In this document: positions 3,650 through 44,085 of the stretch, one piece after another | Numbering within the stretch: position 1 is the first letter of the stretch | Layout of the letters: each line of letters starts with the position of its first letter | Assembly: GCF_009909205.1 (NCBI RefSeq) | Contig: NZ_JAAAPN010000011.1 | Location: forward strand, 62,001-126,000 | Direction of reading: 5' to 3' | Source of the DNA: Aquabacterium fontiphilum | Lineage (GTDB): Bacteria; Pseudomonadota; Gammaproteobacteria; Burkholderiales; Burkholderiaceae_C | Length of the DNA: 64,000 bases | Made by a program: the position numbers and the translations under genes | Notes under the pieces: generated by a model | Databases searched by the model: none | Seen by the model: the letters and a program-made list of their open reading frames with translations, nothing else | Told to the model about the DNA's origin: nothing

Positions 3650-3653
<4 letters not shown>
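3222..3653 (+). CDS. Single-domain response regulator (Rcp1/CheY-like)
   Basis: 143 residues made only of a receiver domain: acidic pocket ED at 14-17, phospho-acceptor Asp67 in LILLDLNMP, conserved Thr/Ser in VLTTSS and Lys in YMIKSA. There is no output domain, so it probably acts by protein contact or phosphotransfer. The ATG at 3222 follows AAGGAG by 6 nt and overlaps the kinase stop; a second ATG follows at once. Its own stop overlaps the next start (ATGA at 3650-3653). It is the likely partner of the upstream kinase and may pass phosphate to the hybrid kinase downstream. Confidence 0.92.
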
Positions 3654-6055
<2,402 letters not shown>

Positions 6056-28508: not shown

Positions 28509-29446
28509 CCGTGGCTCCTGCGGATGCGCCAGGCGCGCCCCATCAGGTCGCGGCTCGACGCCGCACGCGGGGCCCACGCCGGCCGGATCCACGCGCCCGC
28601 GCTGAACGCCAGCCACCGCAGGCCGAAGCCCAAAATCGTGAACAGGTCGAACACCCAGACGCGGTCGGCACCGCGCATCTGCGCATAGAACTGGCGCGGG
28701 CCTTTCAAGGCCGACAGCAGCACATCACCCTGCTGTTGCTTCATGCTCTCGCCCTGGTAATGGATGATGGACGCCCTCGGCGAGTACACCACGCGGTGGC
28801 CAGCCAGCTTGAGGCGGTGACACAGCTCCATGTCTTCGCCGTACATGAAGAAGGCGGGATCGAACAGCTTGCCTTGCAGGGCGTCGGTGCGCAGCATCAT
28901 GTAGGCGCCACAGATCCAGTCGACATCGATCTCGTCGTCCACATCGCGGTCAAGAAACAGCGGCATGGGCCGCCATGCCCGCGGCAGCAGGCGATCCAGA
29001 AAGAGGTAGTGGTTGGCCAGGTTGCACGCGCGGGGGAAGGCCCCGCCCGTCCAGCGCTGCAGGCTGCCATCGGCGTTGAGCAAGCGGCAGCCCATCACCG
29101 CCACATCGGGCAGCGCGTCCATGCGCGCCACCGTGCGCGCAATCGCGCCATCGAGCACCACGGTATCCGGGTTGAGCAGCAGGATGTAGCGCCCCCGGCA
29201 GGCGTCGAGCACCTGGTTGTTGGCCCGTCCAAAGCCCACGTTGTCGGCGTTGGCCGTCAGATGCACCTCGGGGAACTCGGTCCGCACCATGTCGACGCTG
29301 CCGTCGTGCGAGGCGTTGTCGACGACGAAGACCTCCTGCTGGTCGGGCGCCAGGCCGGATGCGGTGCGCACCGATTGCAGGCAGGCGCGCAGCAACTCAC
29401 GTACGTTCCAGTTGACCACGATGATGGACACGATGGGCTGGCTCAT
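28505..29446 (-). CDS. Family 2 glycosyltransferase (rhamnosyltransferase-like)
   Basis: 313 residues with a GT-A fold. Nucleotide-binding start SIIVVNWNVRELL, then VVDNASHDGS, the DXD-equivalent LLLNPDTVV, and ICGAYMMLR followed by FFMYGEDMELCHRL with the catalytic ED. The C-terminal 40 residues hold a hydrophobic segment. It resembles WbbL-type dTDP-rhamnosyl transferases. Overlaps both neighbours by 4 bp. Adds a sugar to the undecaprenyl-linked repeat in the cytoplasm. Confidence 0.88.
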   Translation of the reverse strand: MSQPIVSIIVVNWNVRELLRACLQSVRTASGLAPDQQEVFVVDNASHDGSVDMVRTEFPEVHLTANADNVGFGRANNQVLDACRGRYILLLNPDTVVLDGAIARTVARMDALPDVAVMGCRLLNADGSLQRWTGGAFPRACNLANHYLFLDRLLPRAWRPMPLFLDRDVDDEIDVDWICGAYMMLRTDALQGKLFDPAFFMYGEDMELCHRLKLAGHRVVYSPRASIIHYQGESMKQQQGDVLLSALKGPRQFYAQMRGADRVWVFDLFTILGFGLRWLAFSAGAWIRPAWAPRAASSRDLMGRAWRIRRSHG

Positions 29447-30048
29447 GCGACGTCCTCCTGTTGCGAAGCCGCGGACGGGGCGGGCGCCACATCTGGCGGC
29501 GGCTTGATCACAGCCCGCGGCCCGTACACGCGGCTGCCGGCGGGCACGTCGACAAACACATTGGCATCAGGGCCGAGGTGCGCGCCATCGCCCACCCGAA
29601 CCGGGCCGAACACCTTTGCGCCCCAACCGAGGAAGACGTCATCACCCACGACCGGGTAGCCTGGCCCGCCGCCGATGTCCAGCGGTTGCACGCCACCGCC
29701 TGTGCCACCCCCACCCATCACCGACACGTTGCGGCCGAGCTTGCCGAACAGCACCACGCCGGTGGCATGTGCGATCAGCAGGCCTTCGCCGATGTCGGCC
29801 GTGGGCGGGATCTCGACCCGCGTCATGTAGAGCTTCACCAGAAAGATGAGCCGGGCCGTGTTGCGCCAGCCGTTGACGTAGAGGTAGCGCGCAATGCGAT
29901 ACCAGAAGATGGCCTGGAAGTTGGGCTGCAGGCTCCAGTAGGCCTTCTGTGCGAGGCCGCCGCCGCCCAGCCAGTCGGCCAGCCGGTGGAAGTCGCTTCG
30001 GATCAGCCGCCAGGTCTCGGCCCAGCGCAAAGGGGTGGGGGGTGTCAT
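29443..30048 (-). CDS. Serine acetyltransferase-like hexapeptide acyltransferase
   Basis: 201 residues. An N-terminal helical part (1-75) precedes a left-handed beta-helix (about 78-175) with hexapeptide turns: IPPTADIGEGLLIAHATGVVL, VVGDDVFLGWGAKVFG and IGDGAHLGPDANVF-like steps. Close to CysE/WcaB-type O-acetyltransferases that modify polysaccharide sugars with acetyl-CoA. The ATG at 30048 after AAGGA overlaps the PIG-L stop (ATGA); a longer open frame upstream is the shadow of the PIG-L gene. A Gly-rich insertion (GGGGTGGG) sits in the helix. Confidence 0.85.
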   Translation of the reverse strand: MTPPTPLRWAETWRLIRSDFHRLADWLGGGGLAQKAYWSLQPNFQAIFWYRIARYLYVNGWRNTARLIFLVKLYMTRVEIPPTADIGEGLLIAHATGVVLFGKLGRNVSVMGGGGTGGGVQPLDIGGGPGYPVVGDDVFLGWGAKVFGPVRVGDGAHLGPDANVFVDVPAGSRVYGPRAVIKPPPDVAPAPSAASQQEDVA

Positions 30049-30905
30049 GCAGCGTCCTTGTCCTGCGGGTCGGCCGGCCTGGAAGGCAGCGCCCGCCACA
30101 GCGCGCGCCAGGCCGGCACCGAGCCCTCGAAGAAGGCCTCGGCGCGACCTTGGCCCGTGCGGGGCAGCATCATCGCGCGCCAGGTGTTGAGCCCGTCGAT
30201 GCAGCGGCGGTAATCCACATCGCGCAGCTGCGAGCGATACAGCCCCAGCAGCGCCTGCTTGCGCTCGGCCACCACGGTGATGTCGAGCACGCGGTTGGCC
30301 ACCACCGGCGCCCACACCTCGTAGCCGCGCAGCCGCACGCGACGGGCCCACGCGCCACAGCGCATCAAGGCCGCATCGAGCAGGCGATTGGTCTGCCAGT
30401 GATCTTCCAGCAAGTCCATCACAAACGGCAGGTAGATGAGCTCGGGGGCGCATTCGTCGAGGTGCTGCGCCAGGCGCCTCACGGCCGCCTCGTCGGGGCG
30501 CACGCCGCCGTCGGGCAGCGCCAGAAAGCCCACTTGGCAACCGGCACCCTCGGCCCAGGCGCGGGCTTCGGCTTCGCGCTCGGCCATCAGGGCCTGCTGC
30601 ATGGCGGCCCGGGCTTCGGGCGCCAACGCAGGATCGTGCAGCCGGCGGTCGCCCCAGCGACCGTCGGCAATGTGGATCACACTGACCTGAGCGCCCGCCG
30701 CCACATGGCACAGCACGGCACCGCCACAGCCGATGGCCTCGTCGTCCGGATGGGGCGACAAGACCACCACACGCTGCTCCGAGCAGGATTCGATCGGCCG
30801 CGGCCAGCGGTCGTGCTCGGCCAACATCAGCGCCACAGCCAACGAGTTGCGGGCATCGGGCCGCAGAAAGCGCCGGTAGGCCCAGCGCACAAGGCGGTTG
30901 ATCAT
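30045..30905 (-). CDS. PIG-L family zinc deacetylase
   Basis: 286 residues. LmbE/PIG-L N-deacetylase fold with the zinc motif SPHPDDEAIG (His52, Asp55) and a later His in LLEDHWQTN. Members remove N-acetyl from GlcNAc-linked lipids, mycothiol precursors or sugars. In this operon the likely target is an N-acetylated sugar of the repeat unit or its lipid carrier form, leaving a free amine that could then accept another acyl group. Overlaps both neighbours by 4 bp. Confidence 0.87.
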   Translation of the reverse strand: MINRLVRWAYRRFLRPDARNSLAVALMLAEHDRWPRPIESCSEQRVVVLSPHPDDEAIGCGGAVLCHVAAGAQVSVIHIADGRWGDRRLHDPALAPEARAAMQQALMAEREAEARAWAEGAGCQVGFLALPDGGVRPDEAAVRRLAQHLDECAPELIYLPFVMDLLEDHWQTNRLLDAALMRCGAWARRVRLRGYEVWAPVVANRVLDITVVAERKQALLGLYRSQLRDVDYRRCIDGLNTWRAMMLPRTGQGRAEAFFEGSVPAWRALWRALPSRPADPQDKDAA

Positions 30906-32029: not shown

Positions 32030-33471
32030 GCCGCCCCTCCCTGCCGGCGCGCGCGCCACCATTGGCCAGCGGCACGGCAGTCTTCGGCATGCCAGCGCGT
32101 CCAGCCGCCCACCAGGGGCAGCGCCGCGGCGTAGGCCAGCGTGCCCAGCAGCAGGGCGATGAGCACGCCATGCGGTGCCTGCGCCCAGGCGAAGACGCCC
32201 AATGCGGCGGCGGCCGCGACGAGGCAGCGCCCGGCCAGCGCCAGCAGGCCATCGACCGGCAGCGCGCGCTGCGCCCACGCCAGACGCGCCAGCACGCGCA
32301 AGGTCAGCGCCAGCACCAGCGCGGCAGCCGCACCGGGCGCGCCCTGCCACAGAGACAGGCCCACCAGCAGCGGCACCAGCGCCCCCAGGCCCACCAGCAT
32401 GCAGCGCAGGTCAGCCCGCTGCGCCTGCGCGGCCAGCATCGCAGTCGACAGCAGTTGATCCAGCGTCATCCACCAGGCGGCCAGCAGCAGCACCTGCAGC
32501 ACCGGCGCAGCGCCCTGCAGGTCAGGCGGGTACAGCCAGCTCACCACCCACGGCGCCAGCGCCATGCCGATGAGGGCGGCCGGCACCCCCAGCACCAGCG
32601 CCCAGCGCAGGGTGCGCGCCATCAGCGTCAGAAAGCGGGCACGGTCGTGCACGAACCAGCGCGACAACACCGGGAACACGACCACCAGCATCATTGTGGA
32701 GGCCAGCAACGCCGCATCGTTGACCCGTGCGGCCGCGGCATACACGCCCGCCGCGCCCACGCCGACCAGCGAGGGCAGCACCAGCAAGTCGAGCCGGGTG
32801 GCCAGCGCCGTCACCAACGTGATGGCCAGAAACGTGGGCGTGTGGGTGGCCAGCGCCTGCACGGCCGCCCAGCGCGCCGGCCGCCAGGCACCGCGCAGCA
32901 CGGGATGCAGCGCGTAGGCGACCGCCGCCAGCCAGCGCCCGGCGCAGAAGCAGGCCATGAAGGCATCCAGATCGGCATCACCAGCCACCAGCCAGATGGC
33001 CGCCAGCACGCGCCAGGCCGATTCAGCCAGGTTCACGCCGACCACCGCCCGCAGCAGTTCGCGGCCCACGAGCACGGCCTCGGCCGCCAGCGTCCACACC
33101 GTGGGCACCAGCGCCAGCGCCAGCCAGCTCAAGGCCACCTGCCAGCGCGGCTCACCCGCCCACAGCGCGTAGCCCACCACCGCTGCAGCCAGCGCCACCC
33201 CGGGCATCAAGCCGAACCACAAGGCCGCGCGCGCCATCCCGCCGGCTTCTCCTGGCTGCGCTGCCACGCTGCGGGTCAGATGGGGCTGCAGCCCCAGCAG
33301 CGGCAAGGCCTGCAGCAGAAAGAACAGGTTCATCGCCCACGCAAAGCCGCCCAGCGCGCTCACCCCGAGGCGATGCGACATCACCCAGAAGAGCCCGAAA
33401 TTCAGCATGGCGATGCCCACGCGCATCACCGTGACCGACAGAAAGCGCTGCACCAGCGCGCGGGCGCTCAT
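32026..33471 (-). CDS. Wzx-type polysaccharide flippase
   Basis: 481 residues with about 12-14 hydrophobic helices, of the MATE-like polysaccharide transporter group. N terminus FLSVTVMRVGIAMLNFGLFWVMSHRLG is typical. It flips undecaprenyl-linked repeat units to the periplasm. The ATG at 33471 follows GAGGGG and overlaps the polymerase/ligase stop (ATGA). Adjacent to the Wzy-like gene, as in many Wzx/Wzy clusters. Confidence 0.86.
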   Translation of the reverse strand: MSARALVQRFLSVTVMRVGIAMLNFGLFWVMSHRLGVSALGGFAWAMNLFFLLQALPLLGLQPHLTRSVAAQPGEAGGMARAALWFGLMPGVALAAAVVGYALWAGEPRWQVALSWLALALVPTVWTLAAEAVLVGRELLRAVVGVNLAESAWRVLAAIWLVAGDADLDAFMACFCAGRWLAAVAYALHPVLRGAWRPARWAAVQALATHTPTFLAITLVTALATRLDLLVLPSLVGVGAAGVYAAAARVNDAALLASTMMLVVVFPVLSRWFVHDRARFLTLMARTLRWALVLGVPAALIGMALAPWVVSWLYPPDLQGAAPVLQVLLLAAWWMTLDQLLSTAMLAAQAQRADLRCMLVGLGALVPLLVGLSLWQGAPGAAAALVLALTLRVLARLAWAQRALPVDGLLALAGRCLVAAAAALGVFAWAQAPHGVLIALLLGTLAYAAALPLVGGWTRWHAEDCRAAGQWWRARRQGGAA

Positions 33472-34964
33472 GGCCGCCCCTCGCCTGTCGGCCGCAAGCG
33501 GCACAGGGCCTGAAGCAGCCCGGCCGTCAGCCACAGCATGAACACGCGCACATCAGCGTAGTAGTTGTCTGACGCCAGAAACAACATCTGGCTGACCAGC
33601 GCACCCACCAGCCCGACGGCCAGGGCCTGTGTGCCCGGATCGCGCCAGCGCGACAGCGGCCAAGCCTGGCGCACCCAGCGCCACATCAGGTAGACCCAGA
33701 ACAGCATGGCTGGCACACCCAGCTCGGCAGCCAGCAGCAGGTAATGGTTGTGCACCACCAGTTCGAGCAGCTGCTTTTGGTAGTCCTCAGAAATGGTGGC
33801 GAACGAAGGCGGGATGTGCTCATGCGCGGCCCGGCTGTACTGGCCAAAACCCACGCCGGTCAGGGGCTGCGCGCGGATGATGGTGAGCGCCTGGTCGTTG
33901 AGCACCAATCGGGATTCCGTGGAGCGGTCGTCCGGCTGCGTCAGCCGCCACAGCACCTGCGGGTAGGCCACCAGAATGGCGCCGAGCAGGGCCACACCGG
34001 CCAGCGCGCCAGCCACCAGGTGGGTCGGCCCGATCACGCGCAGCCGCCAGTACAGCGCGGCGATCACCAGCACGGCCAGCGCAAACGCCGCCCAGCCGCC
34101 CCGAGACAGCGTGGCCAGGAGCATCACACCGGCCACCCCCAACACGCCAAGCGCCACCCACCATACCCGCGCGGCAATGCGTTGCGGCCCCATGAGCACG
34201 AAGGCCAGCGCAGGCGCCAGCAGCAGCGTGAGGTAGTCGGCCAGGGCGTTGGGATGATCGAAGGCGCCAATGGGCCGAAAGGCCGCGGCCTCCAGCCCCC
34301 CGAAGTTGACCGTGCCCACGGCCATCGGCACCTTGGCACCCGGCAGCGTCACGTAGCTGCTGGTGGCCATCTGCGCGAGCACGAGCAGGAACTGCAGGCC
34401 CAGCGCCCACGGCAGCACCGCCAGGACGGCACGCACATCGGCCTCGTCCTCGATGGCATGCGAGACCACGTAGTAGCCCAGCACGCACAGTGAGTAGGTG
34501 ATGCCGGTGGCCACCGTCAGCAAGGACACCGTGGGTGAAGCGAGGATGGTCACCCAGATCCACGCGAGAAAGCACAGCGCCAGCCGGTCCAGCGCCGTCA
34601 GCGGCAGGGGCCGTCGCGCGATCCACAGCCGGGAGGCCACCCAGCCGCCCGCCAGGACGAACAGCACCACGTGCGAGACCGAGAGATACCAACCGGGCGA
34701 ATAGAACACATCGAGCGGCGGCACCAGGGCCTTGCTCAGACTGAAAGGCGCCGTGAAGAACAGCAGGCCCAGCCACAGCCTGCGCTTGTTGCCGCGGTGC
34801 CAGGCCAGGCCCGCGCCGCCCGCCAGCGCCACCACGATCAGCAGCGGCAGGCTGGCCTTGTCCTGCAGGCTGGCCACGATCATCCACCCCACCAGTGCGG
34901 CCACGGCCAGCCCCATGGCCCACCAAGGCCAGGCGCGCGCGGCGGCACGGGTGTGGGTGGACAT
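33468..34964 (-). CDS. O-antigen polymerase/ligase family membrane protein (Wzy/WaaL)
   Basis: 498 residues with 11-12 membrane helices and a large periplasmic loop (about 345-415) containing LTGVGFGQYSRAAHEH and HNHYLLLAAELGVPAM, the O-antigen ligase signature region. It polymerises repeat units or ligates the chain. Since Wzz and Wza are present, polymerase is more likely. It overlaps the CpsD-like ATPase by one base (TGATG). Confidence 0.88.
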   Translation of the reverse strand: MSTHTRAAARAWPWWAMGLAVAALVGWMIVASLQDKASLPLLIVVALAGGAGLAWHRGNKRRLWLGLLFFTAPFSLSKALVPPLDVFYSPGWYLSVSHVVLFVLAGGWVASRLWIARRPLPLTALDRLALCFLAWIWVTILASPTVSLLTVATGITYSLCVLGYYVVSHAIEDEADVRAVLAVLPWALGLQFLLVLAQMATSSYVTLPGAKVPMAVGTVNFGGLEAAAFRPIGAFDHPNALADYLTLLLAPALAFVLMGPQRIAARVWWVALGVLGVAGVMLLATLSRGGWAAFALAVLVIAALYWRLRVIGPTHLVAGALAGVALLGAILVAYPQVLWRLTQPDDRSTESRLVLNDQALTIIRAQPLTGVGFGQYSRAAHEHIPPSFATISEDYQKQLLELVVHNHYLLLAAELGVPAMLFWVYLMWRWVRQAWPLSRWRDPGTQALAVGLVGALVSQMLFLASDNYYADVRVFMLWLTAGLLQALCRLRPTGEGRP

Positions 34965-35563
34965 CAGAGCGCCCGTCGATAGAGCCAGGCCGGCACATAG
35001 CTGGGCCGGCGGTTGAGCACCACCCCCAGCATGCGCTCGGACGCCACGGGATGGGCCTGCAGCGCACCTTGTACGACCTCACGGCGCGTCTCGCCTGCGT
35101 CCACGACCAGCAGCACGCCGTCGACGGCTTGCAACAGCGCGCCACAGGCGGCCAGCGGCCCGCCATCGACCACGGTCATCGCGCAACGCGCGCGCAGCGC
35201 CGCCAGGGCCTGTTGCACGCCGTGCGGCTGAAACAGCCGTTGTGCGGCCGGTCGCGTGCCTGGCCCCAGTGTGTGAACCCCATCGGTGACGCGGCCCAGC
35301 ATGGCCTCATCCAACGCATGCCCCTGCAGCAGCTCGGCCCAGCCTGCGGCCGCCTCGGCGTGCATGCTGCCAGCGTCCACCCAGGCCACCGGCCCGGTGC
35401 ACTGCTCGACCAATGCCTGCGCCAGGCGCCGCGACACCAGCGTCTTGCCCTCGCCCGCCCGCGCGCTGCTCACCAGCACGACCTGGCCGGCATCCGAGGC
35501 GGGCAGCCGACTGAGCACCTGCAATCCCAGGCTGTGAAAACCGGCTTCGTTCAGTGGGCTCAT
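34964..35563 (-). CDS. CpsD/Wzc-like P-loop ATPase, short form
   Basis: 199 residues. Walker A SARAGEGKT, a weak A' motif VAWVDAGS, and Walker B VVDGGPLA place it with bacterial tyrosine kinases of the CpsD/Wzc group. The C terminus has only two Tyr (YVPAWLYRR), not the usual cluster, so kinase regulation may be reduced. It partners the separate Wzz-like membrane protein encoded just upstream (overlap of 4 bp), a split arrangement like CpsC/CpsD. Confidence 0.82.
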   Translation of the reverse strand: MSPLNEAGFHSLGLQVLSRLPASDAGQVVLVSSARAGEGKTLVSRRLAQALVEQCTGPVAWVDAGSMHAEAAAGWAELLQGHALDEAMLGRVTDGVHTLGPGTRPAAQRLFQPHGVQQALAALRARCAMTVVDGGPLAACGALLQAVDGVLLVVDAGETRREVVQGALQAHPVASERMLGVVLNRRPSYVPAWLYRRAL

Positions 35564-36930
35564 GCGCGCTCCTTACCCGACAGCACCGGCACCACGCCCA
35601 GCGTGTCCAGACCCAGATAACGCTGCACCTCGTCGGCCGACTGCAGCCGGTGGTCGAAGTAAGCGCGCAGGCCTGCCAGCATCAGGCCCAGCATCAGGCC
35701 CGCCACCGGCCCCAGGGCCGCCAGCAGGATCTTCTTTTTCTGTTGCGCCTTCGTGGGGGCCATGGCGGGATGCAACTGCACCCGTGTGGCCGCCTCGTCC
35801 GGCACCGACGCCAGGTACAGCTCGATCTGGTCCATGCGGCGGCGCAACTCACCGTAGCGCTCCTGCGCGAGCAGGCGCGCGCGTTCAAGCTGCTGGATCT
35901 GGGCGTCGATCTGGGCGCCAGCCAACACGCTGCGTTTGAGGCGTCCTTCGAGCTGGCCCAGCTGACGGCGCGCGCTCTGCACGGGTTCGGCCTCGTCGGT
36001 GTAGACCTGACGCAGTTCCTCGACCTTGCTCTGCAGCGCCAGGGCCTGGCCCTTCATCAAGGCGGCGGTCGATTCGCCCCCCACCCGCGCGCTGCCCAGC
36101 ACCGTGTCCATGCGCAGCCCCGAGGCCTCGTCGGCCAGGGCCAGGCGGCTGCCAGCGGCCGCAGGCGAGGGCACATCCAGCCGGCTACCGCGCTGCACCA
36201 TCAGGTTGAGCAGGCGGGCGTCGAGCTCATCGAGCTCCTGCCGTGTTTCGTCGACTTTCTGCTGGATCAAGTCGAACGAGGCCGCCCCCTGGCGCCGATT
36301 GAGTTCCACACCGAACTGCTGGTAGGCCTGCACCAGCGCGTTGAGCGCGCGCGCAGACAGCGCCGGATCGCGCGTCTCCAGCTGCACCTCCAGCAGGTTG
36401 GAAGTGGTGTCGGCCGTCTTCGAGCGCGCGGGGCTCACCTTGAGCGCCTGCAGGAACAGGTCGACCGTGTCCTGCAGCTCGCGCTCGGCCTCCACCGGTT
36501 CGCGCCGCGACCGCAGCCACGATACCGCCGGGCTGTCCATCAGGTAGCTCATCGGCGTGTCCACCAGTTGCGCCTTGCGGATGCCCAGCTGCCGCACCAC
36601 CGCCTCGACGTTGGCGCGCGAGGTCAGCAGCTGCTGCTCGGTTTCCAGCTTGCGGTTGGCCGGATCGGGCATTTGCGCGTCGCGGTAGGCCGCCACACCG
36701 GACAGGAAAGACGGCGAGCCCTGCTGGTCGGTCTTGATCCAGACCTTGGTCTCGGCCACATAGGCGGCCGGTTGCACCCACGCCGCCAGGCCGACGATGG
36801 CCGTGACCACCACAAACGCCAGCAGGATGAGCCCGCCGTGCTTGAAACCCTGGCGCCACAGGTCACGGCCAGTGAAGCCATGGCCGGCTGCGGGCGGCTG
36901 AGCAGGATAAAGCGCTGCCATGCCTTGCAT
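35560..36930 (-). CDS. Wzz-type chain length determinant (EPS transport)
   Basis: 456 residues. First membrane helix near 33-52 (GGLILLAFVVVTAIVGL), Wzz domain to about 150, long coiled-coil middle (about 180-370) with a Gln/Arg-rich helix, and a second membrane helix near 390-415 (ILLAALGPVAGLMLGLML). It sets chain length and bridges Wza and the CpsD-like ATPase. The ATG at 36930 follows AAGGA by 7 nt, a site that overlaps the stop of the Wza-like gene; a second ATG is three codons later. Confidence 0.88.
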   Translation of the reverse strand: MQGMAALYPAQPPAAGHGFTGRDLWRQGFKHGGLILLAFVVVTAIVGLAAWVQPAAYVAETKVWIKTDQQGSPSFLSGVAAYRDAQMPDPANRKLETEQQLLTSRANVEAVVRQLGIRKAQLVDTPMSYLMDSPAVSWLRSRREPVEAERELQDTVDLFLQALKVSPARSKTADTTSNLLEVQLETRDPALSARALNALVQAYQQFGVELNRRQGAASFDLIQQKVDETRQELDELDARLLNLMVQRGSRLDVPSPAAAGSRLALADEASGLRMDTVLGSARVGGESTAALMKGQALALQSKVEELRQVYTDEAEPVQSARRQLGQLEGRLKRSVLAGAQIDAQIQQLERARLLAQERYGELRRRMDQIELYLASVPDEAATRVQLHPAMAPTKAQQKKKILLAALGPVAGLMLGLMLAGLRAYFDHRLQSADEVQRYLGLDTLGVVPVLSGKERA

Positions 36931-36933
36931 CGG

Positions 36934-37971
36934 TCAGTCCTTCACATTCAGGTCATACACAAAGCCGAACGAGCTGTTGCGCAATGGGGGCAGGATCTTG
37001 AACAGGTACTGATCCAGGCGCTGACCCAGCTCGGCGATGCGGCTGGGCGGCAGCAGCACGATGTCAAACGGCTGCAGCACCACATCGCGGTCGGGCGCAG
37101 ACAGGTAGCGCGACGACAGCTGCGGGCGAATGACCTCGGCCTGGCCGCCGGCACCACGGCGCACCACGACCAGCTGGCTGACATCGGCGGTGGGCAAGTG
37201 GCCGCCCGCCTGCGCCAGCGCCTGCATCAGCGTCATGCCGGGCAGATGCGGCAACATGCCCGGGCGCGCGGCCTCGCCGGTCACGAACACCTGCGGCGAC
37301 TGGAAGGCGCGCACCATCACCACCGGCTCCAGCCGCGACAGGCCGGCCCGGCCGGGGCCTGCGTCGGTCTGCACCATCTGCGAACTGGCGCTGCGCAGGA
37401 TGACGCTGAGCTCAGGCACACGCAGGTGCTGCGCATACCGCTTGCGCAGCTCGTCGCGCAGCGCTTCAGGGCTCAGGCCCTCGGCCTGCACGGTGCCAAT
37501 CAGTTGCAGCTGGATCTTGCCGTCTGGCCGCACACGCAGCTGCTCGTTGAAGGCCGGCTGATACGGGAACTTGATGTCGATCTCGTCGTTGGCCTGCAGC
37601 AAATACTCGCGGCGCTGCTGGCCGCCCGCAGCCCGCGCATACCGCTCACGCACCTCGGCCTGCACGTCCTCCGGGCTGCGCCCCTGCACGTGCACCGTGC
37701 CAATGACCTGCAGGGCCACTTTGCCATCCGGCCGCACGCGCACGATCTGGTCGTACAAGGGGGCGTCGGGCACCTTGAGCTCCAGCTCGTCACCGGGCAT
37801 CAGCGCAAAGGCCACGGGCGCACTCGCCGCCGGCGCCACCGGCAGGCTGGCCAACTCGGGCCCGGCGGGCGTGCCAGCGCAGCCGACCAACACCAGCGAC
37901 ACCCAGGCAGCCATCGCGCGCATCCACCATGCACTCGCCCACGTCCACCCACTCGTTCGACCTGCCTTCAT
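36934..37971 (-). CDS. Wza-like polysaccharide export lipoprotein
   Basis: 345 residues. Lipobox LVGC after a Trp-rich signal peptide. It contains two Poly_export units (VAFALMPGDELELKVPD and EYLLQANDEIDIKFPY), each followed by the repeated block VRVRPDGKV/I-ALQVIGTVHVQG, and a SLBB part (VFVTGEAARPGML). It would form the outer-membrane export channel. The ATG at 37971 yields a proper signal peptide after a purine-rich site; another at 37989 overlaps the upstream stop but lacks a site. Confidence 0.9.
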   Translation of the reverse strand: MKAGRTSGWTWASAWWMRAMAAWVSLVLVGCAGTPAGPELASLPVAPAASAPVAFALMPGDELELKVPDAPLYDQIVRVRPDGKVALQVIGTVHVQGRSPEDVQAEVRERYARAAGGQQRREYLLQANDEIDIKFPYQPAFNEQLRVRPDGKIQLQLIGTVQAEGLSPEALRDELRKRYAQHLRVPELSVILRSASSQMVQTDAGPGRAGLSRLEPVVMVRAFQSPQVFVTGEAARPGMLPHLPGMTLMQALAQAGGHLPTADVSQLVVVRRGAGGQAEVIRPQLSSRYLSAPDRDVVLQPFDIVLLPPSRIAELGQRLDQYLFKILPPLRNSSFGFVYDLNVKD

Positions 37972-37985
37972 GCCTTCCCTGCTCC

Positions 37986-39167
37986 TCATGACACGGTGTG
38001 CCGACGCCAGTCTGGATGGCCCACCCGCTCGCCGGCCGGGGCACGCTCGCGGCGCGCCATGGCCTGCAGCGTGTCCGTGTAGCTGCCCAGCACCTGCTGC
38101 CAGTCGAATACCTCGCGCACGCGCGCCTGGTTGGCCCGCCCCATCGCAGCCCAGTCGATCTGGGCCATCTGATCGAACAGACGCTCGCAACCTGCGCGGT
38201 CGCGGAAATACACCGCCCCGGCCCCGGCCACCCACCGGTTGAAGGGATTATCGTGGGCCAGCACGGCATTGCCCGCGCCCATGGCCTCAAGCAGCGACGG
38301 ATTGGTGCCACCCACGCGGTGACCATGCACATACAGGCGGCAGTGTCGGCGCAGCGCCTGCACCACTGCGGCGTCATAGATGGCCCCGACAAAGCGCACA
38401 TCCGGGCTGGCCGCCTGCAGCACCGCGCGGTGAAAGGGCGAGGCGTCTGGCGCGTAATGCCCCAGCACCACCAGCGGGTGCGGGCGCGGCCGGGCCGAGT
38501 AGGCCCGCACCACTTCCAGCACCGAGTTCTCCGGCTCGGGCCGAGCGATCAGCGTGAGGTACTCCCCCGGCGCCAGGCCCAGCCGTTCCAGATGACGCAC
38601 ATCGGCCCGCTCGATCAGCTCGCCCCCATACGGAATGGTCGCGATCTTGCGGGGCGACACGCGTGTGGCCAGGTGGCGGGCGATGTGGGGGTGATCGGCC
38701 ACCAGATGGTGGCCCAGCCAGCAGCCCATGCGCTCGTTCAGATACAGCCAGGCCTTGGCAGCGGGGCCCCACTTGGCGCGGCTCCACTCAATGCCGTCCA
38801 TGTTGATCAGCGTCGGGATCCCGGCCAGGCGCAGGCGCGCCGTGAAGGCCGCCGTGTTGTAGCCCAGCACCAGCGCCACATCCGGGCGATCGCGCACGGT
38901 TTCGGTGATCGCATGCCAGTCAAAGCGCATGCTGGCCACGGGGGTGTCGTCCCCTACGCGGATGTGCACGCGCTGCACGCCCTGCCAGTGGCTGCGTCGC
39001 CGCGGGCCCTGACCGCCCTCCTGGCAGTACACGGTGACGCGCCAGCCCTGCTCGACCAGGTGGGGAGCCAGGCGCTCGGCAAAGCTCTCGAAGCCGCCGT
39101 GGGCGGCAGGCAGCCCGCGGATGCCGAGGATGGCCACGTGCGGGGTGCGGCGGTGTGCGGCGCTCAT
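37986..39167 (-). CDS. DUF1972-type glycosyltransferase (rhamnosyltransferase-like)
   Basis: 393 residues with a GT-B fold. The N terminus HVAILGIRGLPAAHGGFESFAERLA is the DUF1972 signature found in rhamnosyltransferases such as Cps2T. The donor domain has TLIARPEPENSVLEVVRAYS and GTNPSLLEAMGAGNAV. These enzymes often add the second sugar of a repeat unit. Overlaps the hydrolase gene by 4 bp. No initiating sugar-phosphate transferase is seen in the window, so the first sugar must be added by an enzyme encoded elsewhere. Confidence 0.88.
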   Translation of the reverse strand: MSAAHRRTPHVAILGIRGLPAAHGGFESFAERLAPHLVEQGWRVTVYCQEGGQGPRRRSHWQGVQRVHIRVGDDTPVASMRFDWHAITETVRDRPDVALVLGYNTAAFTARLRLAGIPTLINMDGIEWSRAKWGPAAKAWLYLNERMGCWLGHHLVADHPHIARHLATRVSPRKIATIPYGGELIERADVRHLERLGLAPGEYLTLIARPEPENSVLEVVRAYSARPRPHPLVVLGHYAPDASPFHRAVLQAASPDVRFVGAIYDAAVVQALRRHCRLYVHGHRVGGTNPSLLEAMGAGNAVLAHDNPFNRWVAGAGAVYFRDRAGCERLFDQMAQIDWAAMGRANQARVREVFDWQQVLGSYTDTLQAMARRERAPAGERVGHPDWRRHTVS

Positions 39168-41029
39168 GCGGCCTCCCGGGTGCTGGCTCCTGAAGCCGCG
39201 GACACGCGACCGCCGGCAGGACTGTGGACATCCAATGCCAGCGCGGCATCCACCGCATCGAACAGGCGCTGCTGCATGGCCTGCTGCGTGAAGGTGTGGT
39301 CCGTCTCGGGCAGCACGGTCACCCCGACGTGGCCGCGGGTCTGCGCCTGGCGCAGGGCACGGCCGCCTTGCTCGCGCAGCATCACCAGACCTGGCTCGCC
39401 GGCCGAGAACACCCAGTGCACACGGGTGCCACGCGCTGCAAGCTGTCGCAGCACCGTGGGCAGGTCGTTCGTCAACGGCCAGCCCGTCGCGCGCAGCAGC
39501 GACCGCCCCAGGGCGACCGCGCGCTGCCAGCCGCGGCGCGCCACCGCACCCAGGATCAACCCCACGCGTACTTCACCGCGCATCAGCTTGCGCCACCGCG
39601 CCGGGTCGCGCAGCGCACGGCCTGCACCGGCCGCCACCGCGACGGCCACGGCGTCACGGGCTTCGCCGAGCAAAGGCATCTTGTCCTGCCAGAAGTACAC
39701 CATCTGGTTGATCGGCGTGACGGACTGAAAGGGCACGTCTTCCACCGCCGCCGTGAATGCATGAAACGCGCCAGAGCACAGCCCGACAAGATGCAGTGTC
39801 GGGATGCCATGTTGCTGGCGCAGCCACACGCAGATGGCGCGCAGGTCTTCCACCGCGTAGGCGTTGTGCACATGGTTGGCGTGGCCACGCCGGTGTGGCG
39901 GGCTGTTGCCCAGGCCGGAAAGATCAACACGCAGCGCCGCGCAGCCCCGCCGCGCCCAATGCCGCGCCCAGCCCACGTACATGCGGTTGCTGCCCACGCG
40001 GTGTTCGGCGCCCGTGTTGATCATGACCACGGCACGATCGGGCATGCCTTGTGTAGGCAAGGTCAGCACGCCGCGCAGCGCGATGCCGCCGGCCGGCACG
40101 GCCACGGCGTGTTCCACCACGTCGCCACCCGACAGCCGCACAGCTCCCCGCAGCATCTCACCCGCGGGTGTGGCCTTCGGCGCGACCGGCAGGCGGCCCA
40201 CCCAGGCACACACGGCTGCCACCGCCTGCGCGGGCACCTGCGCAAAGTGGGGCACCTGCATCAGCGCGTCATAACCCTCAAAGGGCTGGATCGACCAGGC
40301 CTCGCTGTTGTGGCCGTCGAACCAGGGCAAGGACTGCACGGCGTCTGTCTGGTCCGGACGCGCCAGCACCAGACCATGCGGGGCCGGGCGGGCGAGATCC
40401 GGCAAGGCCAGTGCCGACAGCGCGGCCACGTCGTTGGCGCTCAGCCGGAAGCCACCTGCCTCGATGGCGCCCGCCGGCGCGCCCGCAGCGCCCAGCCCGG
40501 TGCGGGCTTGTGTTGCCAGCCCCAGTGCCTTGCATTCGCGCACCATCTGGCGCCCGCGCAGCACGGGGGCCATGGCCACCCATCCGAGCACGTCCGACCG
40601 GCCCTGCGCAGCCTGGGCCGCCATCAGCGCCCCCAGCCTCAACCCCACGAGCACGATGGCCGCGCCGCCCAACACCATCTGCAGGTGGTCCATGGCCGAC
40701 ACGATGGCCGCTGGCCAGGCGGCCATGGCGGCACCACCGTCGTGCCCAGGTGGATCGGCCGAGTCGCCCGTCCCCGGGGGATCAAAGCGCAGACACACGT
40801 GCCCGGCTTCAGCCAGCGCATCAGCCAGCTCACGGAACAGGCGATGGCTGGACATGGCCTCATACCCGAAGGGTGGGCACAAGACCACCGCGCGGCCCGA
40901 CCACGCCTCGACCGCCGGGCGGTGCAGGTGCGCGAACAGTGGCGTGTCAGCCGGCCCGAAGTAGCCGGCGCTCACACACACGGGCCCGCCAGGTCGTTCC
41001 ACACCAGCGCGTTTGGCACCGGCGCTCAT
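39164..41029 (-). CDS. Double alpha/beta hydrolase with Arg and Cys at the nucleophile sites
   Basis: 621 residues formed by two alpha/beta hydrolase domains (about 15-285 and 300-600). The first has GLRLG (129-133), with Arg131 where the Ser should be, and is probably non-catalytic or structural. The second has GLCSG (416-420) with Cys418 as likely nucleophile, and His578 in ETDHTF. The two halves recall the exosortase-associated hydrolase pair, here fused. Cys-type hydrolase folds such as CmaE and SyrC shuttle aminoacyl groups between carrier proteins, which fits the aminoacyl-carrier ligase encoded just upstream (overlap of 4 bp). Transfer to the polysaccharide is inference. Confidence 0.75.
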   Translation of the reverse strand: MSAGAKRAGVERPGGPVCVSAGYFGPADTPLFAHLHRPAVEAWSGRAVVLCPPFGYEAMSSHRLFRELADALAEAGHVCLRFDPPGTGDSADPPGHDGGAAMAAWPAAIVSAMDHLQMVLGGAAIVLVGLRLGALMAAQAAQGRSDVLGWVAMAPVLRGRQMVRECKALGLATQARTGLGAAGAPAGAIEAGGFRLSANDVAALSALALPDLARPAPHGLVLARPDQTDAVQSLPWFDGHNSEAWSIQPFEGYDALMQVPHFAQVPAQAVAAVCAWVGRLPVAPKATPAGEMLRGAVRLSGGDVVEHAVAVPAGGIALRGVLTLPTQGMPDRAVVMINTGAEHRVGSNRMYVGWARHWARRGCAALRVDLSGLGNSPPHRRGHANHVHNAYAVEDLRAICVWLRQQHGIPTLHLVGLCSGAFHAFTAAVEDVPFQSVTPINQMVYFWQDKMPLLGEARDAVAVAVAAGAGRALRDPARWRKLMRGEVRVGLILGAVARRGWQRAVALGRSLLRATGWPLTNDLPTVLRQLAARGTRVHWVFSAGEPGLVMLREQGGRALRQAQTRGHVGVTVLPETDHTFTQQAMQQRLFDAVDAALALDVHSPAGGRVSAASGASTREAA

Positions 41030-41946
41030 GCCGGCGCCCCCGGCCACAGAAGGGCCTGAAGGTCGGCCGGCCAACCCGAGGGGACGAAGCCGTGGTGACG
41101 GAACAGCGCCATCGCCAGGCGCTCCATGCCGAAGCCCACGCACGCCGAGTGCGCCACCCGCCCGTCTGGCAGCCGGATGTCAAAGGCCTGGCCAAACTTG
41201 TCCTGGTGGTAGTTAAAGGAGCACAGAGCGGTGGGCTGGTCGGTAGACCACACCGGCACCACCAGCTCGAACTTCAACTTTTGATCGCGCTGGGACGCCG
41301 CCATGACCTTGCCGCCGCGCCCGAAAAACGGGTCGGACGCCACCTCTTCGGTGACCGGCAGCCCCAGCTGGCGCAGCATCTGATGACCGCGCGCCAGCCA
41401 CATCTCCCGCCAGGCGAGGATGGCATCGGGGTCGCCCAGCTTGACATACTCGCGCATGCGAAACGACATCAGCCGCGTGGGCTCGGGCGAAGGCTCGTGG
41501 CGAAACACCCAGTTGTAGATGGTCACCAGTCGCCCGCTGTCGGGCAGCGTGCCGGTGAACATGGGATAGACGCCATAACAGGCCGATGGGCTGAGCACCA
41601 CCTCGGTCTGCTCCAGGTGAGGCGCCCACGGCTCGCCGGCGGCGGCCGCTTCGGCAAACCGCAAAGCCGCCAGCCCATTGCCCATGAAGCTGTGGACCGA
41701 GCCACACAGGTGCGGGAAACCATCCAGGTAGCGCACCTTCTGCAGCACGGCCCGGCTCATCACCGGCGGGTGGTTCACCACCACCGCACCGTCGCCCCGC
41801 GCGCTGCGGGTGATGAAGGTGGTCAGCGCGTCCATCACCTGCTCGAAGCGCTCGCCCCGACCAAAGACACCGGGCACCCCCGTGGGCACGATCAGCCCAT
41901 GGCCCACCAGCCCCTCGTGCAGGGCCTGCATCGCATCACCGGCCAT
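41026..41946 (-). CDS. Amino acid:[carrier protein] ligase (stand-alone SerRS homolog)
   Basis: 306 residues, about the length of the Bradyrhizobium enzymes. It is a class II synthetase core without the tRNA-binding arm. Motif 2 region SFRMREYVKLG, motif 3 VGFGMERLAMALF, and the expected zinc ligands Cys123 (SACYGVYP), Glu166 (MREYV) and Cys269 (HSACVGFG). Family members activate Gly or Ala with ATP and load it on the phosphopantetheine of a dedicated carrier protein instead of tRNA. A carrier and a phosphopantetheinyl transferase are encoded divergently 2 kb away. The ATG at 41946 follows AAGGAG by 8 nt, 2 bp after the dehydrogenase stop. Confidence 0.9.
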   Translation of the reverse strand: MAGDAMQALHEGLVGHGLIVPTGVPGVFGRGERFEQVMDALTTFITRSARGDGAVVVNHPPVMSRAVLQKVRYLDGFPHLCGSVHSFMGNGLAALRFAEAAAAGEPWAPHLEQTEVVLSPSACYGVYPMFTGTLPDSGRLVTIYNWVFRHEPSPEPTRLMSFRMREYVKLGDPDAILAWREMWLARGHQMLRQLGLPVTEEVASDPFFGRGGKVMAASQRDQKLKFELVVPVWSTDQPTALCSFNYHQDKFGQAFDIRLPDGRVAHSACVGFGMERLAMALFRHHGFVPSGWPADLQALLWPGAPA

Positions 41947-41948
41947 GC

Positions 41949-43136
41949 TCACAGCTCCTTGAGGACAGCCAGCATGTCGGCGTTCTTGCCGAGAATGCGC
42001 TCGTTGGCAATCATCATCGACGCCGACAACACATCGCGGTAATGCCGACCGAGGCTGTAAGGCGAGCGGTTCTTGTAGCCGGCAATGCCGACGATCTGAA
42101 CCGCATCGTGGACGATGGCCTGGGCCTGGGTCGAGGCGCCGATCTTGAGGTTGTTGAACCGCAGCGCCCAACGCATGCCATGCAGCGCCTGCCGGCCCTC
42201 GGGCTGCGCTTCCAGCGCATCGACCTCGTCGGCCACGCTGCGCCAGTGCGCGGCCAGCGCCTCTTGCGTCACCAGCACCTCGGCCAGACGGCGCGCGCTG
42301 GGCAGCTGCACGCCCGGCTGTTTGCGAGCGGCAGCGCGCACGAATGTGGCGGCGCGCGACACGGCGCCACGTGCAATGCCCCACCACAACGCGGCCCACA
42401 GCACATGCGAATACGGCACCATGGACTCGGCCGCGATGTCGGCAAACGGCACCGGCAACACCTGCTCGGCGGCGCCCTGAGAACGCAGCACGAAGCCGGG
42501 GCTGCAGGTGCCGCGCATGCCCAGCGTGTCCCAGTCGCCCTCCTGTTCCAGTTGCGCATCGCTGCGGCGCACCACCACCAAGGCCTGATCGTTGGCCGCG
42601 GCGTCGGGATGGCGCCGACAGGTCACGAGAATGGCGTCGGCATGCGCGCAATACGAACCCGTGGTCGCGTGCTTGTCGAGCGCGAAACGCTCACCCGCGA
42701 TCGTGACGGCGCAGATGCTGCTGCGCGTATCGCCGAACGTGCCCTCTTCAGAGGTCATCGACGCCAGCAGCCACTCGTTGGCGGCCACCTCTTGCAGGAA
42801 GCGGCCCGCGAAAACCGACCCTTGCGCATGGCGCACCAGACAGGCCAGCTGGTTGAAGTGCATGGCCAGCACCATGCCACTGGCACCGCAGGCTGCCCCC
42901 AGTTCGGCGCACAACTCGGCCTGCTGCCGCAGGTTCAGGCCAGCGCCGCCCCACTCGACCGGCACGCCGGCAGACAGCACGCGTGCCGCACGCAAGGCCG
43001 CAAACGTCTCTTGGGGAAATCGGGCTTCGGTGTCCACCGCATCAGCGGTGGCTGCAGCCACCGTGCGGGCAATCTCGCGCACGGTCTGTGCCAATGGCTC
43101 GCATGCGTCGTGCATGATCGGAGGGTTCGCAGTCAT
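41949..43136 (-). CDS. Acyl-CoA dehydrogenase-family flavoprotein, head of EPS operon
   Basis: 395 residues. N-terminal helical domain, middle beta domain (SMTSEEGTFGDTRSSI, near the flavin), and C-terminal helices ending with YKNRSPYSLGRHYRDVLSASMMIANERIL. Relatives act on acyl-CoA, but carrier-bound substrates are known (prolyl-carrier dehydrogenases). Placed directly before the aminoacyl carrier ligase (2 bp), it may oxidise the loaded aminoacyl thioester. It is the first gene of the 15-gene operon. The start at 43136 has no strong ribosome binding site; an ATG at 43115 is an alternative. Confidence 0.85.
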   Translation of the reverse strand: MTANPPIMHDACEPLAQTVREIARTVAAATADAVDTEARFPQETFAALRAARVLSAGVPVEWGGAGLNLRQQAELCAELGAACGASGMVLAMHFNQLACLVRHAQGSVFAGRFLQEVAANEWLLASMTSEEGTFGDTRSSICAVTIAGERFALDKHATTGSYCAHADAILVTCRRHPDAAANDQALVVVRRSDAQLEQEGDWDTLGMRGTCSPGFVLRSQGAAEQVLPVPFADIAAESMVPYSHVLWAALWWGIARGAVSRAATFVRAAARKQPGVQLPSARRLAEVLVTQEALAAHWRSVADEVDALEAQPEGRQALHGMRWALRFNNLKIGASTQAQAIVHDAVQIVGIAGYKNRSPYSLGRHYRDVLSASMMIANERILGKNADMLAVLKEL

Positions 43137-43364
43137 CGTGTGGTCAGCATGTGCCCCGAGCCAAGCAGCACACGCGCATCAAAAGAGCAGTTGGGGGAAG
43201 GATCGCAGCCAAGGGATACGACCAATTGACTATAGCTTTCACCGCTTGCGCAGTGGTGACACATCAGCCATTTGGCCCCCCGCGTTTGGGCTACGCAAAT
43301 GCGGGGGATCAACCCGCCACGGACATCCCAGTCCGCTTGCGCCTCTGCAACTCATATGCAATTC
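43137..43364. promoter_or_regulatory. Divergent promoter region of the EPS operon and acpS-acp
   Basis: A 228-bp spacer. A 12-bp inverted repeat (43277-43288 with 43296-43307, one G-T pair, 7-nt loop) stands between two copies of the 10-mer CCGCTTGCGC (43242-43251 and 43333-43342). A -10 TATAGT on the minus strand (at about 43230-43235) could serve the EPS operon, with no good -35, suggesting an activator. No sigma-54 signature was found. Confidence 0.45.
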
Positions 43365-43844
43365 ATGCCGCCTGACACCCATCGACCATCGCTCAACGCA
43401 CCGCATGTCACGCCACCAACAGGATGGCGTGTGGGCGTCGACCTCGCCAACGTGGCGACCGTGCGCGAGGCTTTGGCACAGTTCGATCGGCGCTACGTCG
43501 ATCGCATCTACACCGCGCAGGAGCAGCGCGATGCGGCTGCGCGGCCGCCCCCCCACGACGCTGACGCACTGGCCGCCCGCTGGGCCGCCAAGGAAGCGGC
43601 CCTCAAGGCCCTCGATCTGTGTGACAGCGGTGTGAACCTACGCGACATCGAGGTGCATCGCGCGCCCGACGGCGCGCCCACCTTGCTGTTGCACGGCCGC
43701 GCCGCGGAGACCGCCAGGATGCGGGGGTGGCAGCCCGCGTCGCTCAGCCTCAGTCATGATGCGGGTTTCGCCATTGCCGTGGTGCTGGCCCGCCCATGGC
43801 CGACATCCGAACCGACCGACTCATTCCATGCCACAAGCAAGTGA
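43365..43844 (+). CDS. AcpS-type 4'-phosphopantetheinyl transferase
   Basis: 159 residues. Transfers phosphopantetheine from CoA to a carrier-protein serine. AcpS signatures: GVDLANV with metal-binding Asp26 and RWAAKEAALKAL with Glu77. It is longer than housekeeping AcpS and lies next to its likely substrate carrier, overlapping that gene by 17 bp. It is probably a pathway-specific enzyme, with a house AcpS encoded elsewhere. ATG at 43356 is an alternative start; neither has a clear ribosome binding site. Confidence 0.88.
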   Translation: MPPDTHRPSLNAPHVTPPTGWRVGVDLANVATVREALAQFDRRYVDRIYTAQEQRDAAARPPPHDADALAARWAAKEAALKALDLCDSGVNLRDIEVHRAPDGAPTLLLHGRAAETARMRGWQPASLSLSHDAGFAIAVVLARPWPTSEPTDSFHATSK

Positions 43845-44085
43845 TTTCCATGGCGCCATCCGCGAGGTGCTGCAGGCCCACGGCAAGCTGGCCGTCGATG
43901 CGTCGACGCTGCCGCCCGAAGCCAGCCTGTACGACGCTGGCATGAGCTCGCATGCCAGTGTCAATGTGATGCTCGCGCTGGAGGCGCGGTTCGACGCCGA
44001 ATTTCCGGACGAGATGCTGACGCGCCAGACCTTTCAGTCCATCGCCCAGATCGCGCAGGCGCTGGCCCAACTCGTCGGCCGCTGA
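43828..44085 (+). CDS. Dedicated acyl/aminoacyl carrier protein
   Basis: 85 residues, four-helix carrier size. The modified serine is probably Ser41 in DAGMSSHASV, where classical carriers have DSL; the preceding Asp is replaced by Ser and the following Leu by His. Variants of this kind (AGxSS/TS-x-ASV) occur in carriers served by amino acid:carrier ligases. Overlaps acpS by 17 bp, and its stop is 1 bp from the convergent binding-protein gene. With the ligase, dehydrogenase and Cys-hydrolase it completes a carrier-bound amino acid pathway. Confidence 0.88.
   Translation: MPQASDFHGAIREVLQAHGKLAVDASTLPPEASLYDAGMSSHASVNVMLALEARFDAEFPDEMLTRQTFQSIAQIAQALAQLVGR

What the first reader, a model, noticed from the sequence alone, without database searches (positions are those of the whole stretch)
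39164..44085. Carrier-bound amino acid pathway wired into an exopolysaccharide operon
Seen: an amino acid:[carrier protein] ligase (class II core, zinc ligands Cys123, Glu166, Cys269), an acyl-CoA dehydrogenase-like protein, a double hydrolase with a Cys nucleophile, a dedicated AcpS-type transferase and a variant carrier protein lie around the head of a Wzx/Wzy operon, the first three cotranscribed with it. Known: such ligases load Gly or Ala onto carrier phosphopantetheine; acyl-CoA dehydrogenase relatives oxidise carrier-bound amino acids; CmaE/SyrC-type Cys hydrolases move aminoacyl groups between carriers. Inference: an amino acid or an oxidised derivative is transferred to a sugar amine freed by the PIG-L deacetylase, giving an aminoacylated polysaccharide. 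The end use of these ligases is, as far as I know, undescribed.
Basis: partly seen in the sequence, partly recalled or inferred. Interest (0 to 1): 0.88.

Follow-up and report, generated by a model that had tools for sequence, protein, structure and literature searches.

The report
Carrier-loaded amino acid feeding exopolysaccharide operon
A bacterial exopolysaccharide operon carries its own enzymes for loading an amino acid onto a carrier protein, probably to decorate the sugar polymer, and the pattern recurs in related bacteria even though the enzyme thought to attach the amino acid is missing here.

Summary
The genes are as described: a class II amino acid:[carrier protein] ligase over its family cut-off with intact zinc ligands, carrier, dedicated AcpS-type transferase, acyl-CoA-dehydrogenase-like flavoprotein and a Cys-nucleophile double hydrolase, overlapping into a Wza/Wzz/Wzy/Wzx operon. 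The tie is more than chance: family genomes with a close Wzy relative carry the ligase in 5 of 6, others in 26 of 393 (p = 1e-5). Aquabacterium lacunae has ligase, carrier and transferase on the same operon, without flavoprotein, hydrolase or DUF1839. That such ligases serve a cell-surface sugar was predicted in print in 2010. New here: DUF1839, partner in the usual cluster, has the predicted fold of CcbD, which joins carrier-bound amino acids to amino sugars. DUF1839 and the usual glycosidase have no match in this genome, and this ligase belongs to a diverged clade. So this is a stripped variant tied to exopolysaccharide, its transferase unidentified (hexapeptide acyltransferase or hydrolase are candidates). 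PIG-L is in only 3 of 8 such operons; the flavoprotein lacks the usual catalytic Glu and is dispensable. Amino acid, acceptor and linkage are untested.

The parts
41026..41946 (-). amino acid:[carrier protein] ligase (class II aaRS-like), diverged clade A
   Evidence: NF005479 394.7 bits > 357; Bll0957 structures match E 6e-70; zinc ligands invariant
43828..44085 (+). aminoacyl carrier protein
   Evidence: NF005480 96.4 > 72; best PDB match is 4h2w chain C, the aminoacyl carrier protein in the same entry as the ligase
43356..43844 (+). dedicated AcpS-type phosphopantetheinyl transferase
   Evidence: PF01648 63.7 bits; overlaps the carrier gene
41949..43136 (-). acyl-CoA-dehydrogenase-like flavoprotein, perhaps oxygenase-like
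   Evidence: PF02771/PF00441; best PDB match DnmZ; Val/Ile instead of Glu at the catalytic-base position in 63 of 63 aligned
39164..41029 (-). tandem alpha/beta hydrolase: Arg at nucleophile position in first half, Cys in second
   Evidence: related to TIGR03101 and TIGR03100 below their cut-offs
37986..39167 (-). family 4 glycosyltransferase (DUF1972), head of the exopolysaccharide genes
   Evidence: 57-66% identical copies at the head of the other operons
36934..37989 (-). Wza-type export protein
   Evidence: PF02563 113 bits; ATGA overlap with the gene before
35560..36930 (-). Wzz-type chain length protein
   Evidence: PF02706 24.7 bits, just under its cut-off of 25.5
34964..35563 (-). Wzc-type kinase domain
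   Evidence: TIGR01007/TIGR03018 below cut-off
33468..34964 (-). Wzy polymerase (used as marker of this operon type)
   Evidence: PF04932 67 bits
32026..33534 (-). Wzx flippase
   Evidence: PF13440 35 bits
30902..32350 (-). family 4 glycosyltransferase; true start uncertain
30045..30905 (-). PIG-L deacetylase (found in 3 of 8 operons of this type)
   Evidence: PF02585
29443..30048 (-). CysE-like hexapeptide acyltransferase, candidate aminoacyl transferase
   Evidence: cysE model 85 bits, below cut-off; weak Hexapep, below cut-off; relatives found in 7 of 8 operons, the window included
28505..29446 (-). family 2 glycosyltransferase
26850..28616 (-). glycosidase-like protein (arabinofuranosidase ASD1 domain); true start uncertain
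25639..26853 (-). family 4 glycosyltransferase, end of operon

Best explanation
A dedicated aminoacyl-carrier module serves a Wzx/Wzy exopolysaccharide. The ligase activates a small amino acid (Gly or Ala by family precedent, inferred) and loads it onto the carrier made holo by the adjacent AcpS-type enzyme. In the cytoplasm the aminoacyl group is moved from the carrier to a sugar of the repeat unit before Wzx flips it; Wzy, Wzz and Wza then polymerise and export the decorated chain. In the usual version of the cluster the transfer is made by DUF1839, a papain-like enzyme of CcbD fold. Here that enzyme and the cluster's glycosidase are missing, the ligase has diverged, and transfer is done by another protein: most likely the CysE-like hexapeptide acyltransferase (shared with A. 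lacunae) or the Cys half of the hydrolase. The flavoprotein and hydrolase are accessories. Shown: genes, order, no DUF1839 or glycosidase match in the draft genome, co-occurrence, fold of DUF1839 (predicted model). Inferred: substrate, acceptor, transferase, linkage.
Against: No transferase is identified, and the known candidate is absent. Lack of DUF1839 is not peculiar to operon-linked ligases: G542, G260 and two more genomes with a ligase have no match either. In S. hippei both systems are present but apart, and G411 has the operon fragment without a ligase match (80% complete genome). Few of the mapped ligase loci lie beside this operon. On the ligase tree the operon label needs 5 changes against 5.9 in shuffles (32 of 500 as low), so linkage is hardly clustered. 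Neither PIG-L nor the hexapeptide acyltransferase is in every operon. Nothing shows which polymer, if any, receives the amino acid.
Confidence: 0.55

Rival explanations
1. The module makes a separate small aminoacylated sugar or glycolipid and the exopolysaccharide operon is a frequent neighbour that is co-inherited and co-regulated, not the acceptor.
For: Few of the mapped ligase loci show this operon; in S. hippei, and for the ligase in G813, the two are apart; ligase clusters also occur in Myxococcota and other groups; linkage is hardly clustered on the ligase tree.
Against: Translational overlap, co-occurrence across six genera, and A. lacunae, where ligase, carrier and transferase sit on this operon without DUF1839, flavoprotein or hydrolase.
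Confidence: 0.25
2. One reading: PIG-L frees a sugar amine, and a carrier-bound, possibly oxidised, amino acid is joined to it.
For: PIG-L lies in the window operon, in I. paludis and in S. hippei; CcbD, the fold relative of DUF1839, acylates an amino sugar amine (PMC12945683, passages).
Against: PIG-L was not found in 5 of 8 operons; the flavoprotein has no match in A. lacunae and lacks the catalytic Glu; DUF1839 is absent here.
Confidence: 0.15
3. A decaying remnant: the usual cluster was placed beside the operon, lost DUF1839 and the glycosidase, and the rest is drifting.
For: Two core genes missing here and further ones in A. lacunae; G813 keeps only carrier and hydrolase at the operon.
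Against: All frames intact, zinc ligands invariant in the 10-member clade A, an 87% identical relative P0002, tight gene overlaps; ligase, carrier and transferase kept in both genomes. No selection test at codon level was made.
Confidence: 0.12
4. The flavoprotein acts on the amino sugar (N-oxidation as in DnmZ), not on the carrier-bound amino acid, so the product is an N-oxidised or otherwise altered amino sugar plus an amino acid.
For: Best PDB match is DnmZ, E 1e-13; no Glu at the dehydrogenase position in 63 of 63 and invariant Ser243-His244. The function of DnmZ as an amino-sugar nitrososynthase is recalled.
Against: True acyl-CoA dehydrogenases score almost as well; Rv1679/FadE16 is the best NCBIfam match, far below its cut-off.
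Confidence: 0.2

Closest known systems
Amino acid:[carrier protein] ligase with its carrier (Bll0957 and partners; Mocibob 2010/2013, papers not held or not asked for, seen through PMC9437257 passages and PDB molecule names)
   Same: Ligase and carrier families met above cut-off; zinc ligands and core conserved
   Different: Clade A changes at four near-fixed positions (F41L, F59H, P125G/S, Q160M in 8 of 10); overlaps into a Wzx/Wzy operon
Usual DUF1839 cluster (flavoprotein, ligase, DUF1839, GH2-like, carrier, transferase, hydrolase; cell-surface sugar aminoacylation predicted in PMC2922099)
   Same: Five of seven gene types present
   Different: No match for DUF1839 or the GH2-like glycosidase in the genome
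CcbD/LmbD step of lincosamide biosynthesis (PMC12945683, passages)
   Same: Logic: carrier-bound amino acid joined to an amino sugar; DUF1839 of the usual cluster shares the fold
   Different: DUF1839 not in this genome; polymer rather than antibiotic
Dlt D-alanylation and AlmEFG lipid A glycylation (PMC12930378, passages)
   Same: Ligase plus carrier feeding a surface glycan or lipid
   Different: Their ligases are AMP-binding-domain adenylating enzymes (recalled), not class II aaRS-like; transfer there is outside the cytoplasm (recalled)
XrtA/PEP-CTERM exopolysaccharide loci (TIGR03100, TIGR03101 hydrolases)
   Same: The double hydrolase resembles both hydrolases fused; an operon with export genes
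   Different: Scores below cut-offs; no exosortase was looked for

Membership tests
Amino acid:[carrier protein] ligase | NCBIfam NF005479 above cut-off, no tRNA-binding domain, zinc ligands | tested here: met
   394.7 > 357, 306 aa core only; Cys123, Glu166, Cys269
Amino acid:[carrier protein] ligase | Loads an amino acid onto the cognate carrier | not testable with these tools
   needs biochemistry
Usual DUF1839 cluster | DUF1839 (PF08893) present | tested here: not met
   0 matches in G000; the same call found it in 20 of 30 genomes, one of them weak and with a stop
Usual DUF1839 cluster | GH2-like glycosidase present | tested here: not met
   0 matches in G000; the same protein finds it at 43-51% identity in G421 and G719 stretches by tblastn
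Usual DUF1839 cluster | ligase, carrier, AcpS-type transferase, flavoprotein, double hydrolase together | tested here: met
Wzx/Wzy-dependent exopolysaccharide operon | Wzx, Wzy, Wzz, Wza genes in one operon | tested here: met
   PF04932, PF02563 and PF13440 over cut-off; Wzz 24.7 against 25.5
Carrier-bound amino acid dehydrogenase (acyl-CoA dehydrogenase mechanism) | catalytic Glu in the C-terminal helix (position recalled) | tested here: not met
   Ile376; Val or Ile in 63 of 63; position carried over without a gap from the RD motif, since the printed alignments end about there
XrtA-associated hydrolases 1 and 2 | TIGR03100/TIGR03101 above cut-off | tested here: not met
   87.6 < 168; 90.5 < 203
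BtrH-type transferase in this genome | PF14399 match | tested here: inconclusive
   0 of 4 genomes; of 14 controls only B. subtilis rings, below cut-off, so sensitivity is unproven
CcbD-fold amide synthase (for DUF1839 of the usual cluster) | same fold with invariant Cys and His | tested here: met

The most novel reading that the evidence does not exclude
A new way to aminoacylate a Wzx/Wzy polysaccharide: a class II aaRS-derived ligase with its own carrier feeds a cytoplasmic transferase that is not DUF1839, DltB or AlmG, and the ligase clade has shifted its pocket to a different amino acid for this use. A. lacunae shows the leanest form found: three genes plus the operon.
Probability: 0.35. 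Interest if true: 0.8.

Novelty: new variant of a known kind. Interest (0 to 1): 0.62.

Why it matters
As far as the searches here show, the purpose of aaRS-derived carrier ligases has stayed open since their biochemistry was described. This locus and A. lacunae tie them to one polymer operon with few other genes, so the end product becomes testable by comparing one polysaccharide with and without the ligase. The CcbD fold of DUF1839 gives the usual cluster a concrete mechanism for a step predicted in 2010.

Tried and rejected
PIG-L as the conserved provider of the acceptor amine: rejected as general, 3 of 8 operons.

The hexapeptide acyltransferase as a substitute that appears where DUF1839 is lost: not supported, since it is also in operons of genomes with DUF1839; I. 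paludis has a GNAT protein in that stretch and no hexapeptide match. It stays a candidate only because it is the one acyltransferase-type gene that I see in both the window and the A. lacunae operon.

The hydrolase as the obligatory transferase: weakened, no match at E <= 1e-10 in A. lacunae or PBB6.

Absence of DUF1839 as a mark of the operon-linked type: rejected.

A BtrH-type replacement: no match, with little control. A Wzy cut of 1e-100 was set after seeing the list, at the gap between 3e-103 and 4e-37.

Literature: the 2010 paper on these ligases is not held; the 2013 one was not asked for; both were seen through PMC9437257 passages. Searches (all 18 and 6 titles listed; 15 of 112 listed; 25 of 43 listed; none) showed no title about an experiment that ties these ligases to a polysaccharide. 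Two listed papers that name Bll0957 or Atu2573 (PMC10888616, PMC11941606) were not opened. One search (15 of 146 listed) on exosortase hydrolases with carrier proteins gave nothing usable. Only the open-licence library was searched.

Statistics with caveats: 41 of 103 against 1 of 40 uses some profiles seeded from ligase loci; with window-seeded profiles it is 26 of 103 against 1 of 40, p 0.0014, and for Wza, Wzz and Wzy alone 10 of 103 against 0 of 40, p 0.06. 103 is the 106 deduplicated loci without the window, less L154-L156 with only distant ligase relatives. The control stretches were placed by hand at round coordinates in own-family genomes that carry a ligase.

A structure of the hydrolase was not obtained, nor a Foldseek search of the DUF1839 model. 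One structure job, for DUF1839, was run.
Full report
WHAT IS THERE. On the minus strand a flavoprotein (41949-43136), the ligase (41026-41946), a tandem hydrolase (39164-41029) and a family 4 glycosyltransferase (37986-39167) follow one another with gaps of 2, -4 and -4 bases, and Wza follows with -4. Then come Wzz, a Wzc-type kinase, Wzy, Wzx, a glycosyltransferase, a PIG-L deacetylase, a CysE-like hexapeptide acyltransferase, a family 2 glycosyltransferase, a glycosidase-like protein and a last glycosyltransferase. On the plus strand, divergent from the flavoprotein, the AcpS-type transferase overlaps the carrier gene. The ligase and carrier score over their NCBIfam cut-offs and the transferase over its Pfam cut-off.

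WHERE IT IS. The window lies in a draft genome of 3.65 Mb in 37 contigs, rated 100% complete. One genome of its genus, G787, has the ligase on a contig of the same length and position as Aquabacterium lacunae KMB7, so the genus is probably Aquabacterium (inference).

THE USUAL CLUSTER. A scan of named genomes gave 224 stretches with a relative, of which the best 80 were kept; searches of 369 class members and 399 family members found ligases over cut-off in 4 and 31 genomes, the window's included. After removal of duplicates, 107 loci including the window were clustered by gene: flavoprotein in 93, ligase in 93 (all loci were fetched by a ligase or distant relative; the gene picker lost some, the window's among them), a GH2-like protein of about 846 residues in 81, carrier in 75, a 336-residue protein in 70, the double hydrolase in 67, AcpS-type transferase in 49, an esterase in 17. 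These are lower bounds, as contigs end and short frames are missed. One member of the 336-residue family is DUF1839 (PF08893, 297 bits) and one of the large family has GH2/mannosidase-type domains.

WHAT THE WINDOW LACKS. DUF1839 has no match in the window genome, while the same search finds it in 20 of 30 chosen genomes. The GH2-like protein has no match either; the same query finds relatives at 43-51% identity in stretches of G421 and G719. A. lacunae also has no DUF1839, no flavoprotein at E <= 1e-30 and no hydrolase at E <= 1e-10; its genome was not searched for the GH2-like protein, which is not in the stretches read. Its ligase, carrier and transferase lie on the same exopolysaccharide operon. 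Lack of DUF1839 is not confined to operon-linked ligases: G542, G260, G771 and G774 have no match either.

IS THE TIE TO THE OPERON REAL. Using Wzy as marker, 6 of 399 family genomes have a match below 1e-100; the next is at 4e-37. Five of these six have the ligase over cut-off, against 26 of the other 393 (Fisher 1.2e-5, or 1.3e-4 without the window genome). The six are in six genera. The sixth, G411, is 80% complete and its Wzy contig is 4 kb. Of the 17 genomes with weaker Wzy matches 2 have the ligase over cut-off; strong against weak gives p 0.003. In the genus, 3 of 42 have the Wzy and all 3 have the ligase, against 5 of 39 (p 0.005, or 0.026 without the window genome).

Physical linkage in the eight operons mapped (with gene orders): window (flavoprotein, ligase, hydrolase, transferase, carrier), A. 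lacunae (ligase, transferase, carrier), I. paludis (full cluster), PBB6 (full but for the hydrolase and a detected transferase), G421 (full, hydrolase near the far end of the operon), G719 (GH2-like and hydrolase at the operon; ligase, flavoprotein and DUF1839 on a 7 kb contig), G813 (carrier and hydrolase at the operon, ligase and DUF1839 with a usual cluster elsewhere; this assembly has 9% contamination), Sphaerotilus hippei (apart). I. paludis, PBB6 and A. lacunae were first found through their ligase, so the unbiased figures are those drawn by Wzy.

WIDER SETTING. Polysaccharide genes lie within about 10 kb of the ligase in 41 of 103 loci against 1 of 40 control stretches, or 26 of 103 with window-seeded profiles only, p 0.0014; for export genes alone the difference is not significant.

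THE LIGASE HAS DIVERGED. In the tree of 120 rows the window groups with P0002-P0008, P0069 and A. lacunae (100/100, stem 0.62), near the ligases of usual Aquabacterium clusters (that join has 89/86 support only); the ligases of I. paludis, PBB6, G421 and G719 lie in another clade (100/99) with two rows not known to be linked. The label 'beside the operon' needs 5 changes on the tree against a shuffled mean of 5.9, with 32 of 500 shuffles as low, so linkage arose or was lost several times; six labelled rows are few. Clade A differs at F41L, F59H, P125G/S (10 of 10 each) and Q160M (8 of 10, else V or L), where the 106 rows outside clade A and the four linked rows of the other clade have the first letter in 97, 99, 104 and 105. 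P125 is two residues from zinc ligand Cys123 and Q160 six from Glu166. A changed substrate or carrier contact is a fair guess, untested.

THE FLAVOPROTEIN. Its best solved relative is DnmZ (E 1e-13), closely followed by true acyl-CoA dehydrogenases. At the position of the usual catalytic Glu all 63 aligned relatives have Val or Ile, and Ser243-His244 are invariant; the position is carried over from the RD motif and the role of Glu there is recalled. It may be an oxygenase-like enzyme rather than a dehydrogenase, and could act on the amino acid or on an amino sugar.

HOW IT MOST LIKELY WORKS. Ligase and AcpS-type enzyme make aminoacyl-carrier; a transferase attaches the group to a sugar before export. 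The transferase here is unknown. The CysE-like protein is the only acyltransferase-type gene that I see in both the window and A. lacunae operons; the hydrolase Cys domain is the second candidate in the window but has no match in A. lacunae. PIG-L in 3 of 8 operons cannot be the general source of the amine. The family's amino acids, Gly, Ala or Ser, are taken from a table in PMC9437257 (passages).

NOVELTY. The general idea is in print as a prediction. New here, as far as I can tell, are the exopolysaccharide-specific co-occurrence, the CcbD fold of DUF1839, and the stripped, diverged variant. The searches made (some lists capped) showed no experiment on the end product; the held library lacks most subscription papers.

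Noticed in passing
L200 (G813:C23) 2373-4756: A related operon keeps carrier and double hydrolase at its head but no ligase; the genome's only ligase match lies in a usual cluster on another contig, so the carrier may be loaded in trans.
   Followed up: partly
L169 7843-8943: In I. paludis a GNAT protein lies in the operon between PIG-L and the family 2 glycosyltransferase, where no hexapeptide acyltransferase was found.
   Followed up: partly
L121 (G525): A second double hydrolase and a protein of the acyltransferase-3 group extend the usual cluster; that gene group is near the ligase in 13 of 107 loci, one member confirmed as Acyl_transf_3.
   Followed up: no
L058, L059, L064, L067, L068, L075, L078: Seven Undibacterium clusters end beside an opposite-strand protein of about 433 residues; the one scanned (L075) has no Pfam match. 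I took it by eye for a possible flippase and used that copy as a Wzx seed.
   Followed up: no
window 39164-41029: The double hydrolase looks like a fusion of relatives of the two hydrolases of XrtA exopolysaccharide loci, which are recalled to sit with a carrier and an AMP-forming ligase; the two systems may share an acyl-carrier step.
   Followed up: no
L154-L156 (G758, G323, G207): More distant ligase relatives (125-152 bits, under the cut-off) lie in stretches where none of the other cluster genes was picked up.
   Followed up: no
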